DNA from: Rhodoferax sp.
GTDB lineage: Bacteria; Pseudomonadota; Gammaproteobacteria; Burkholderiales; Burkholderiaceae_C
Direction: 5' to 3'
Length of the DNA: 64,000 nt
Assembly: GCA_030645355.1 (NCBI GenBank)
Contig: JAUSNJ010000127.1
Location: forward strand, 62,001 to 126,000
Below, piece after piece: positions 18,977 to 64,000 of this stretch (position 1 is the first letter of the stretch; each line of letters begins with the position of its first letter). The notes under the pieces were generated by a model. It worked only from the letters and a program-made list of their open reading frames with translations. It made no database searches and was not told the DNA's origin. The translations under genes were made by a program, and so were the position numbers.

Positions 18977-20227
18977 ATGACCGAAAAGCCCTCCGCCCTG
19001 CCCCACATCAAGGTGCTGGACCTCTCCAGGGTTCTGGCCGGTCCCTGGTGCACCCAGATGCTGGCCGACCTCGGCGCCGATGTCATCAAGGTTGAAAAAC
19101 CCGGCGAGGGCGACGACACCCGGCATTGGGGCCCACCCTTCCTGCAAGACGCCAACGGCAAGAACACCGAACACGCCACCTACTTCACCGCCTGCAACCG
19201 CAACAAACGCTCCGTCACCATCGACATCGCCAAGCCCGAGGGCCAGGCGTTGATCCGCCAGATGGCAGCGCAGAATAACGTGCTGGTGGAGAACTTCAAG
19301 GTCGGCGGCCTGGCCAAGTACGGGCTGGACTATGCGAGCCTGAAGGCACTGAACCCGCGCCTGATTTACTGCTCCATCACCGGCTTCGGCCAGGATGGGC
19401 CTTACGCCGAGCGCGCCGGCTACGACCTGATGATCCAGGCCATGACCGGCATGATGGACATCACCGGCCGGGCCGACGGCACGCCGGGCGGCGGGCCGCA
19501 ACGGGTGGGCGTGGCGCTGACCGATTTGTTCACCGGGGTCTACGCCTGCAGCGCCATCCTGGCGGCCATCGAGGTGCGCCACCGCACCGGCGTGGGCCAG
19601 TTGATCGACATGGCCTTGCTCGATGTCGGCATGGCCATCCTGGCCAACCAGGCGGCTGGTTTTCTGAACACGGGCAAGGTGCCGCAGCGCCAGGGCAACA
19701 GCCACCCCAGCTTGGCGCCCTACCAGGACTTTCCCACGGCGGATGGCGCCATGCTGCTGGCCATCGGCAACGACGGCCAGTTCGCCCGCTTTTGCGAGGC
19801 CACTGGCCAGGCGCAGTGGGCCGCCGATGCGCGCTTCGCCACCAACAGCTTGCGGGTCGAACACCGTGCCACGCTGATCCCGGCCATAGAAGCTGTCACC
19901 CGTAGCCGCACCACGGCCCAGTGGATTGCGCTGCTGGAGCACAAGGCCGTGCCCTGCGGCCCGATCAACACCATAGCCCAGGCTTTTGCCGACGAACAGG
20001 TTGTAGCCAGAAAGCTTAAGCTAAATCAGCCGCTAGCCCTCGAAACCATTGAACATACTGCTATTACTTCAATAGCATCCGTAGCCAGCCCCCTGCGCCT
20101 GGTGGATACGCCGGCGGTGGTGCGCCGGCCGCCGCCGGCGCTGGGTGAACACACCGACGCGGTGCTCACCGGGCTGGGCCTGAGTGCGGCGGCCATTGCG
20201 GCGCTGCGCCACCAGTCGGTGGTCTGA
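18977..20227 (+). CDS. CaiB/BaiF family CoA-transferase
   Basis: IKVLDLSRVLAGPWCTQMLADLGADVIKVEKP; internal element copy C near residues encoded by 20021..20080. Confidence 0.93.
   Translation: MTEKPSALPHIKVLDLSRVLAGPWCTQMLADLGADVIKVEKPGEGDDTRHWGPPFLQDANGKNTEHATYFTACNRNKRSVTIDIAKPEGQALIRQMAAQNNVLVENFKVGGLAKYGLDYASLKALNPRLIYCSITGFGQDGPYAERAGYDLMIQAMTGMMDITGRADGTPGGGPQRVGVALTDLFTGVYACSAILAAIEVRHRTGVGQLIDMALLDVGMAILANQAAGFLNTGKVPQRQGNSHPSLAPYQDFPTADGAMLLAIGNDGQFARFCEATGQAQWAADARFATNSLRVEHRATLIPAIEAVTRSRTTAQWIALLEHKAVPCGPINTIAQAFADEQVVARKLKLNQPLALETIEHTAITSIASVASPLRLVDTPAVVRRPPPALGEHTDAVLTGLGLSAAAIAALRHQSVV
20021..20080 (-). repeat. Interspersed element copy C, in-frame inside CoA-transferase CDS
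   Basis: Reverse complement: GATGCTATTGAAGTAATAGCAGTATGTTCAATGGTTTCGAGGGCTAGCGGCTGATTTAG. Confidence 0.75.
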
Positions 20228-20309
20228 CAAACTTCTGGAAACATCGGCGGGAGGCTCTGCTATCCTGACGCATCGTCGCCACATTGCGTGACCCACCCAG
20301 CCTGACGGC

Positions 20310-23300
20310 ATGAAGACATCCTTCACCCCGGTGCGCCTTTTCCTTGAAGTCAGTGTGGCTGTCGCACTGGCAGAGACCCTGGTCATGCTGGTGCTGCCCG
20401 TGCTCGCGCCGGGCCTGACCGGCCTCGCCGAAGGGCTGGTGGATGTGGCCCTGCTGATCCTGCTGTCCGGGCCTGCTGTTTACTGGCGCTGTATGGCAGC
20501 CATGCGTCGTTCGGCCGTGCAAGCAGTTGCCGTCAGAACCAACACCACCAAGAACCTCAGCATTGGAGCCGCCATCGGCATGACGGCGGCCGCGCAGTTG
20601 CTGGGCCTGGCGGTCACGGGTGCGATGGTGGCGTGGCTTAAAGTGGATCTGGACAAGGACGCACAGATCCAGTTTGACCGGGGCACCGAGCGCATCGAGG
20701 CCGAGATGAAGCGCCGCTTCAACCGACCCCTGGCCGGACTCAAGGGCGCGCGCGGGGCCTTCGCGGCCAGCCGGGACATCACGCGTCTGGAATTCCGGGC
20801 CTATGTTGAGTCGCGTGATATACCCAACGAGTTCCCGGGCATACGAGGTTTTGGCTTCATTGCGCGCGTGCAACGGCCCGACCTGGACGCATTCATTGCC
20901 CGCGAACAGGCGGACTTTGCGCCAGAATTCGAAGTACGCACCCAAGGCGACGCATCCGACCTGTTCATCATTAAATACATCGAGCCGACTGCCGGCAACC
21001 GGGCGGCCTTTGGCCTGGACGTGGGACAAGAGGCGGTGCGCCGCGAAGGCATCGAACGGGCCATGAACACCGGGCAGCCGGCACTCACCGGAAAGATCAC
21101 GCTGGTGCAGGACAGCAAGCATTCCCCGGGTTTCCTGTACTTTTTGCCGGTGTATCGCCATGGAGCGGAGCCCGCCACGCCGGCGCAGCACCGGGCGGTA
21201 CTGGTCGGTGTCCTGTACGCGCCTTTGGTGGCCAACGAGTTGTTCGCGGGTCTGGCGGACGTGGCAAACCAGACCTTGCGCGTCGAGGTATTGGATGGCG
21301 ACACCCTGGTGCCCCAGAGCAGCCTGTTTGATTCGCTCAACAACGGGCCCATGCCCGCGTCCGAGACACCGCAGGGCTACACCGATATGCCGGTCTTGTC
21401 CGTGGTGCGCCCCATTGCCGTGGGGGGGCGCACCTTGAGTTTGCGCGTAAGCAGCACACCCGTCTTTCATGCCACGCAGGACCGCACCAGCCTGGCACTG
21501 GCCAGCGTCGCTGGCGCGCTAGCAAGCATGTTGTTGGCGTTGACGGTGTGGCTGCTCGCAGTGGGACGTTTGCGGGCACAGCGTCTGGCCGAGCGCATGA
21601 CCGCTGATTTGGACCGCCTGGCCCGGGTGGTCCAGCACACCACCAACGCCGTCACCATTGCCGACCCGCACATGCGCATCACCTGGGTCAATGAAGGATT
21701 TACCCGTCTGACGGGCTATTCGCAGGAAGAAGCGCTGGGCCAGACCCCGGGTGACCTGCTGGGCAGTGGCAAGGCCGACCCGCAAGCCATACAGACGCTG
21801 GTATCCGCGGTCGAAAGGGGCGAACCATGCCGCGTCGAAGTGTTGAACCGCGCCAAGGACGGCAGCGAGTACTGGGTCGATACCGAAGTGCAGCCGACCC
21901 GCGATGCAGATGGCGTGCTGATCGGGTTCATGGAAATTGGCACCGACGTGACGGTGCAAAAGCAGACCCAGAAGCGGCTGGAAGCGGCCATCCGCGAATC
22001 GAGAACCCTGCTCAGCACCGTGGAGACGCACACCATCGTGTCGATTGCCGACCACCAGGGGACGATCACGGAAGTCAACGACGCGTATTGCGATATTTCA
22101 GGCTACCGCCGGGAAGAACTGATAGGGCAAAACCACCGCATCGGCAACTCCGGCGTGCACCCTGCGCAATTCTGGACGGATATGTGGGCCGTCATTTCCA
22201 CCGGCGCCTCGTGGCGTGGCGACGTCTGCAACCGCGCCAAGGATGGTTCGCTGTACTGGGTGGACAGCATCGTTGCACCCTTCGTCGGCGACGACGGCCA
22301 GGTGGAACGCTATGTCTCCATCCGCACCGACATCACGGAGCGCAAGCGCGCCCAGCAGGTGCTGGCGGAAATGTCCGACCGCATGGCGCTGGCCATCGAA
22401 GGCGGCAGCGATGGCCTGTGGGACTGGATGGACATCAAGACCAACGCGCAGTGGTGGTCGCCCAGCTATTACGCGCTGATTGGCTACACACCCGAGGAAC
22501 TGCCAGCCAGTCTGGCTAGTTTCAGCAGTATCCTGCACCCCGACCACATAGATTTGTGCAACCTGGCAGCTGCGGGCGCAATCGCCGGCAACCGAGAGTA
22601 CGACCAAGAACACATGCTGATGACCAAGACCCACGGCTACCGCTGGTTTCGGTCCCGCGCCAAGGTCTACCGCAACGCGGCAGGCGAGGCCATCCGCATG
22701 GCGGGTTCTGCCCAGGACATTCATGACCGCAAATTGGCCGAGGCACAGCTCAAGGAAGCGGTAGCCCGTGCGGAACAGGCCAGCATCGCCAAGAGCCAGT
22801 TCGTGGCCAATATGAGCCACGAAATCCGCACCCCCATGAACGCCATTCTGGGCATGCTCAAACTGCTGCAGAACACTGACCTGACGGTGCGCCAGTTGGA
22901 CTACGCCGCCAAGACGGAAGGCGCGGCGCGTTCGTTGCTGGGAATACTCAATGACATCCTGGACTACTCCAAGGTCGAAGCCGGCAAGATGACGCTGGAC
23001 CCGCGGCCCTTCCGTCTGGACCGGCTGATGCGCGACCTGTCGGTGATCCTGTCCGCCAATGTGGGCGCCCGAAACATCGAGGTCCTGTTTGACGTGGACC
23101 CCGCAGTGCCCAATTGCCTGTTCGGTGATGACATGCGGCTGCAGCAGGTGCTGATCAACCTGGGCGGCAATGCCATCAAGTTCACCAGTGCCGGCGAAGT
23201 GGTGCTGCACCTGCGCCTGGTTGAGCAAACGCCCCAGGACGTGCTGGTCGAGTTCGCGGTGCAGGACAGCGGTATTGGCATTGCCCCCGAGAACCAGGCC

Positions 23301-63377: not shown

Positions 63378-63613
63378 GGGGTGTCTCCTGGTGTCGGGAG
63401 TTGCAGTATATCGCCAGCACCCATGAGGGGTATGTGCGTGAGGACACGGAAAACCCTTTATCTGCTTGCTTTGCGCGCTATCAATTTTGAATTGACGGCG
63501 GTAGACCGCATCCGGTTTACCGCCGGTTACACATTGGAAGGCGTTTGGGCGCGGCGCGTGTGCGCCTCTGTCGGGTTGGCTGCGTTGTAAGGGTTCATCT
63601 AGAAGGATCCCTT

Positions 63614-64000
63614 ATGTCGACGACCCCCCTGTACTCCACTGGCCAAGTTCAGACCGCTCCCAACCGCTGGTTGTGGGCGGCGGTTGGCGCCTTGGGCGCC
63701 ACCGTGCTGGCCCTCGGCGTGGCGCTGGTGCAAATGCGCTCCGCCCCAACACCCTCGTCCACGCCTGAGGTTGCCGTGCCGGCACTGAACGCGCCTGCGG
63801 TGGCGACTGCCAGTTCGCCAGCGCCTATCGCTGCGCCAGTTGCCTCAACGTCAAATGAGCCTGTAGCCCCCTTAAAACATGCCCCTATCACTACCAAAAA
63901 GATAGCATCCAAGAGCGTGGCGCCTGCTGCGCCAACCGCCGCGCAAACACAGCCCGTGGCAGTGGCCACCCCCATGCCACCTCCACCTCCCCGTGTCATC
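63614..64000 (+). CDS. membrane-anchored Ala/Pro-rich protein, truncated at window edge
   Basis: MSTTPLYSTGQVQTAPNRWLWAAVGALGATVLALGVALVQMRSAP... one TM then A/P-rich linker; ORF open to window end. Confidence 0.65.
   Translation, partial: MSTTPLYSTGQVQTAPNRWLWAAVGALGATVLALGVALVQMRSAPTPSSTPEVAVPALNAPAVATASSPAPIAAPVASTSNEPVAPLKHAPITTKKIASKSVAPAAPTAAQTQPVAVATPMPPPPPRVI
63851..63912 (-). repeat. Interspersed element copy L (degenerate), in-frame in the terminal ORF
   Basis: Reverse complement: GATGCTATCTTTTTGGTAGTGATAGGGGCATGTTTTAAGGGGGCTACAGGCTCATTTGA. Confidence 0.6.

What the first reader, a model, noticed from the sequence alone, without database searches (positions are those of the whole stretch)
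20021..63912. The small element encodes a similar peptide in the same reading frame in unrelated proteins
Translated in the coding direction, copy C (CoA transferase) gives LALETIEHTAITSIASV, copy G (RecQ N-terminus) gives LALENIAYCATILIANE, and copy L (terminal ORF) gives VAPLKHAPITTKKIASK. Frame and orientation relative to the gene are the same in all three. This suggests a mobile sequence tolerated as a peptide insertion, analogous to Rickettsia palindromic elements (established precedent). The Rickettsia comparison is by analogy only.
Basis: partly seen in the sequence, partly recalled or inferred. Interest (0 to 1): 0.8.

Follow-up and report, generated by a model that had tools for sequence, protein, structure and literature searches.

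The report
Small DNA repeat inside conserved proteins
A DNA repeat of about 70 letters, present in dozens to hundreds of copies in Rhodoferax and related bacteria, often sits inside ordinary enzymes as a read-through stretch of extra amino acids, and inside those genes its DNA motif is kept even at letters that do not change the protein.

Summary
The three peptides exist and lie in genuine copies of a dispersed ~70-nt AT-rich repeat. A model built without any window copy scores them 34, 29 and 23 bits; the best of 30 shuffled windows scores 10.7. RecQ: the repeat lies upstream of the gene in most congeners, with in-frame stops in several, so it is probably not translated. CoA-transferase and glycine-zipper protein: old copies without a clean empty site. 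The decisive case in the window was missed: metH (62309-62383) carries a 20-aa in-frame insertion, present in 10 Rhodoferax species, absent from about 18 and from solved MetH structures.

Of 258 distinct copies in Rhodoferax and relatives, 60 lie wholly inside genes, in both orientations, mostly in frames free of stop codons; a shared frame is no sign of peptide function.

New: inside four host genes the GCTA...TAGC arms are held at synonymous positions (Ala codon GCT in 74 of 75 ortholog sequences; genome frequency 8%), while in three of the four the spacer diverges more than the flanks. This points to a maintained DNA motif. Analogous to Rickettsia palindromic elements, but a different case. 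I found no published description. Mover and binder unknown.

The parts
62309..62383 (+). repeat copy inside metH, read in frame F2 as [24 protein letters not shown]: clean 20-aa insertion
   Evidence: held-out score 45.5 bits
60111..62882 (+). metH, C-terminal part of a split methionine synthase (pterin, B12 and activation domains); host gene
   Evidence: Pfam; PDB
20006..20080 (-). copy C inside a family III CoA-transferase, read in frame R1; no clean insertion against orthologs
18977..20227 (+). family III CoA-transferase, host gene
   Evidence: Pfam PF02515
57489..57563 (+). copy G, upstream of recQ; probably not translated
55608..57539 (-). recQ ORF; most orthologs align only from about residue 28, so the first ~27 residues are probably a spurious extension
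63836..63910 (-). copy L inside an A/P-rich linker of a glycine-zipper protein, frame R1
63614..64000 (+). glycine-zipper protein gene, start at 63614, continues past the window end (L001:615-1325)
10239..10313 (+). intergenic repeat copy
13070..13144 (+). intergenic repeat copy
35008..35082 (+). repeat copy overlapping a gene end
36520..36594 (-). degraded repeat copy at a gene junction
41682..41756 (-). intergenic repeat copy
59055..59129 (-). intergenic repeat copy in the loop of a ~420-bp imperfect palindrome

Best explanation
This is one copy set of a dispersed DNA element of about 70 nt (roughly GAWTTGCTAYnnnnTTnRTAGC - n8 - CATATTYCACGAGGGCTAGMGGCCnATTT) spread through Rhodoferax and many related genera of its family. 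Shown: most copies are intergenic, but about a quarter lie inside genes, in both orientations, mostly in the frames that the sequence leaves free of stops, and are then read through as extra residues; in metH this is a discrete 20-aa insertion. Shown: orthologous copies persist between species while the GCTA...TAGC arms stay fixed at synonymous sites and, in most hosts, the spacer changes fast. Inferred: selection (or another DNA-level process) maintains the DNA motif, most simply as a binding site for a trans-acting protein, and the peptide is a tolerated by-product placed in loops and linkers. Inferred: copies arose by slow, old insertion events by an unknown mover.
For: 65 exact core matches in the genome, none for the reversed pattern; 59 copies in a 372-kb sample, aligned without internal gaps, with sharp edges and unconserved flanks; held-out and shuffle control. 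metH filled and empty alleles, and solved structures lacking the insert; thiL about 11 aa shorter in G113, which is nearly free of the repeat; 11- and 18-residue gaps in solved TrmB and CCA-enzyme homologs. 60 of 258 copies inside genes: F2 34, R1 17, F1 6, R2 3. Hosts are real Pfam families. Synonymous-site constraint: first Ala codon GCT in 25/25 ThiL, 9/9 MetH, 21/21 CoA-transferase and 19/20 dehydrogenase sequences that match the motif at protein level; fifth codon ends in A in 73 of 75; genome usage GCT 8.1%, ATA 8.5%. Mismatch in core versus spacer: 0.14/0.35 thiL, 0.18/0.42 metH, 0.25/0.50 CoA-transferase, 0.04/0.32 in the set of other loci; flanks 0.17, 0.14, 0.23, 0.16. No supported RNA fold and no Rfam match.
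Against: Ortholog sequences are related by descent, so the codon counts are not independent; no tree-based rate test was done. Sequences were selected with a protein-level motif, which may favour copies that kept it. In the dehydrogenase the core is less conserved than the spacer (0.28/0.20), and its length is the same in G113 and G069, which lack most of the repeat's codons. No binding protein or mover was found. Between close relatives I saw no recent gain or loss outside metH, so present-day mobility is not shown. Gene calls came from a simple home-made caller.
Confidence: 0.7

Rival explanations
1. Purely selfish palindromic element of the Rickettsia type: inserts in frame, is tolerated, and simply decays.
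For: Discrete in-frame insertion in unrelated proteins; no function needed.
Against: Arms stay fixed at synonymous sites while the spacer diverges; pure decay would not do this.
Confidence: 0.2
2. A DNA-uptake-type or recombination-enhancing signal kept up by molecular drive: transformation prefers alleles with the motif, so each copy is repeatedly restored.
For: Constraint at the DNA level in coding and non-coding copies in both orientations; high copy number.
Against: Known uptake motifs are short (10-12 nt, own knowledge) and much more numerous; drive does not explain the 60-nt insertion in metH. No uptake data.
Confidence: 0.12
3. A structured RNA or mRNA-stability element acting at transcript level.
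For: Short hairpin GCTA...TAGC; many copies next to gene ends.
Against: Both orientations relative to transcription; RNAalifold consensus only 3 pairs at -0.15 kcal/mol, and the top-ranked covarying columns do not form a helix; no Rfam match.
Confidence: 0.05
4. The peptides are native protein segments and the resemblance to the repeat is coincidence in the three named copies.
For: CoA-transferase orthologs carry I-x-x-I-A residues without the repeat's codons.
Against: Held-out model scores 23-34 bits against 10.7 in shuffles; congeners carry repeat codons at the same place.
Confidence: 0.03

Closest known systems
Rickettsia palindromic elements (RPE)
   Same: Small repeats inserted in frame in unrelated protein genes, read through as extra peptide (review PMC10969869).
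   Different: RPEs there are ~150 bp and in Rickettsia; this is ~70 nt, in beta-proteobacteria, coding in both orientations, with a DNA motif held at synonymous sites. No sequence comparison with RPEs was made.
Beta-proteobacterial repeat element (BRE), PMC3110155
   Same: Dispersed repeat of 75-91 bp reported from Bordetella, Polaromonas, Rhodoferax, Delftia; some copies entirely within coding sequences.
   Different: BRE is 69% GC in Bordetella and often tandem; this element is 46% GC and dispersed singly in most places. The BRE sequence was not at hand, so identity was not excluded by alignment.
DUF1010 / gcuF integron cassette (PF06231)
   Same: The dfrA12-gcuF-aadA2 cassette array carries a 52-nt stretch 80.8% like the element consensus inside gcuF, same spacing.
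   Different: There it is part of a cassette ORF in frame R2; translated repeat copies from this family do not reach the DUF1010 cut-off.
REP elements and MITEs
   Same: Short, palindrome-bearing, interspersed, mostly intergenic.
   Different: No terminal inverted repeats visible in the consensus (by inspection); no RAYT or other transposase was looked for.

Membership tests
Rickettsia palindromic elements | in-frame insertion in unrelated protein genes | tested here: met
   metH, thiL, TrmB, CCA enzyme; 60 of 258 copies in genes
Rickettsia palindromic elements | sequence homology to an RPE family | not tested
   no RPE sequences compared
Rickettsia palindromic elements | host is Rickettsia or a relative | tested here: not met
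   Rhodoferax and related genera by record titles; 33 of 121 family genera with 5 or more matches, one genome with one match outside the family in the order-wide sample
Rickettsia palindromic elements | long palindrome with a stable RNA fold | tested here: not met
   only a short GCTA...TAGC stem, no supported consensus fold
BRE (PMC3110155) | GC-rich (69% in Bordetella), often tandem | tested here: not met
   element GC 46%; copies in the genome sample mostly single
BRE (PMC3110155) | sequence identity with published BRE | not testable with these tools
   BRE sequences are in a figure and supplement not held
Rfam RNA families | match at gathering score | tested here: not met
   only two SAH riboswitches in the window
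MITE | terminal inverted repeats | tested here: not met
   none seen in the consensus of 58 copies, by inspection
MITE | target-site duplication, related transposase | not tested
   no recent empty-site pair found; transposases not searched

The most novel reading that the evidence does not exclude
A family-wide DNA-binding site, maintained by selection together with a trans-acting protein, has been built into core enzymes: genes carry an extra peptide because the underlying DNA site is kept. Genomes poor in the repeat (G113, G083, G112) lack the motif in thiL, as expected if the partner protein was lost. In several hosts the left arm lies on native codons (LTIN[AS]IA of the CCA enzyme), hinting that sites resembling the arm are targets.
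Probability: 0.35. Interest if true: 0.88.

Novelty: new variant of a known kind. Interest (0 to 1): 0.68.

Why it matters
In-frame insertion of repeats into proteins is best known from Rickettsia, where it is usually read as selfish DNA tolerated by the host. Here, in Rhodoferax and relatives, many orthologous copies in several enzymes indicate that the DNA motif itself is kept, at synonymous sites, while the encoded peptide drifts. That makes 'why are such elements kept inside genes' directly testable: find the binder, remove one insert from metH in a laboratory strain, measure. It also warns annotators: ORF starts around these repeats, as in recQ here, can be spurious.

Tried and rejected
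RNA element: no supported fold, both orientations. One constant orientation relative to transcription (my first impression from a few intergenic copies): dropped after the gene map. Literal sequence search of the literature for core and spacer words: no relevant paper; general searches found only BRE and the RPE review as near relatives. A first pattern scan of named genomes used a spacer one base too long and found nothing; the second worked. Recent empty sites outside metH: only distant comparisons, so no target-site duplication could be read. The recQ per-position profile (9 pairs) is too shallow to use. DUF1010 as the name of the whole family: translated copies score at most 14.8 bits, below the cut-off of 25.

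Full report
Observation. The three peptides are encoded at 20033-20083 (+), 57486-57536 (- strand) and 63863-63913 (+). Their DNA belongs to a dispersed repeat. The core CGAGGGCTAGNGGCC occurs 65 times in the genome and its reversed control not at all. A profile finds 59 copies in a 372-kb sample of the genome, alignable without internal gaps, with conservation from about position -2 to 69 and flat flanks. A profile built without any window copy recovers ten window copies, with 34.1, 29.3 and 22.9 bits for C, G and L; the best hit in 30 shuffled windows is 10.7.

The three named cases. Copy C lies in a family III CoA-transferase. Orthologs of equal length in other genera carry ordinary GC-rich codons there; within the genus the region varies in length and most congeners carry the repeat's codons. 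An old, reworked copy is likely; a discrete insertion is not shown. Copy G lies 5' of recQ. Most orthologs align only from about residue 28, and in G063, G108, G072 and others stops interrupt the frame; the peptide is probably not made, although a TTG inside the repeat could serve as a start in the own clade. Copy L lies in an A/P-rich linker of a glycine-zipper protein; congeners have orthologous copies and no clean empty site.

The missed case. metH (60111-62882) carries a copy in the other orientation, read as [24 protein letters not shown]. Ten Rhodoferax species have about 20 extra residues between LADFVAP and DYAGLF (24 in G063); about 18 congeners have 3-6 residues there, and solved MetH structures lack the insert. 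On a tree made without the insert the filled species do not form one clade, so there were several gains or losses.

Generality. In 170 loci from Rhodoferax and relatives, 258 distinct copies were found, 60 wholly inside called genes: F2 34, R1 17, F1 6, R2 3, none in F0 or R0. Frame openness over all copies is F2 192, R1 150, R2 106, F0 39, F1 25, R0 2, so frame use mainly follows stop codons; R2 looks under-used. Hosts in the own genome include ThiL, NadD, a LysE-type transporter, an amidase, PRAI, DapF, a GMC oxidoreductase and an NAD-binding dehydrogenase, supported by Pfam; in relatives, by my reading, TrmB, the CCA enzyme and PurL. Solved homologs are shorter at the same place: TrmB by 11, the CCA enzyme by 18, ThiL by about 12, the dehydrogenase by about 9 residues.

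DNA-level constraint. Ortholog sets fetched by protein similarity show the first Ala codon as GCT in 25/25 ThiL, 9/9 MetH, 21/21 CoA-transferase and 19/20 dehydrogenase sequences that match the motif at protein level. GCT makes up 8.1% of Ala codons and ATA 8.5% of Ile codons in the genome sample. The fifth codon (ATA, CTA, GTA, GGA, once GAA) ends in A in 73 of 75, while the third base of the second codon varies. Pairwise mismatch is 0.14 in the core against 0.35 in the spacer for thiL, 0.18 against 0.42 for metH, 0.25 against 0.50 for the CoA-transferase and 0.04 against 0.32 in the set of other loci, with flanks at 0.17, 0.14, 0.23 and 0.16; the dehydrogenase goes the other way, 0.28 against 0.20. 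These counts are not corrected for shared ancestry.

Distribution. Named records are mainly Rhodoferax, with Curvibacter, Polaromonas and a Limnohabitans-like bin. Copies occur on Comamonadaceae plasmids.

Mechanism. Shown: a DNA repeat, read through in frame in many genes, persistent between species, with constrained arms in the host genes examined. Inferred: a protein binds the GCTA...TAGC site. Inferred and weaker: insertion prefers sites that already resemble the left arm, because in the CCA enzyme the arm lies on the native motif RRDLTIN[AS]IA and in thiL and the dehydrogenase only part of the element's length is gained. The mover is unknown.

Comparison. It works like Rickettsia palindromic elements (PMC10969869) but is not shown to be one. 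BRE (PMC3110155) shares hosts and size and also lies inside some genes, but is GC-rich and often tandem; direct alignment was not possible. No paper printing the sequence was found.

Noticed in passing
L359:2501-2552 (pCTX-M3, NC_004464.2): About 1,740 plasmid records, mostly enterobacterial, match the element consensus, nearly all in the 80-90% identity band; in the rows listed it lies mostly in the gcuF (DUF1010) cassette of class 1 integrons. gcuF1's nearest relative is reported from Acidovorax (PMC3375312).
   Followed up: partly
57650-57739 and 59984-60056: Two SAH riboswitches (Rfam RF01057), one before each half of a split metH.
   Followed up: no
58868-59287: A ~420-bp imperfect palindrome (45-nt arms 98% complementary, two inner arm pairs) with a copy of the repeat in its loop.
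   Followed up: no
22755-24340 and 26814-27970: Two similar stretches 75-84% alike, probably paralogous hybrid histidine kinases.
   Followed up: no
L357:5080-5170: One apparent copy of the repeat on a viral contig (IMGVR_UViG_2765235799_000005); the other viral hit, L358, looks like chance.
   Followed up: partly
L307:3675-3730, L300:6368-6423: The repeat's left arm coincides with the conserved RRDLTINSIA motif of the CCA-adding enzyme.
   Followed up: partly
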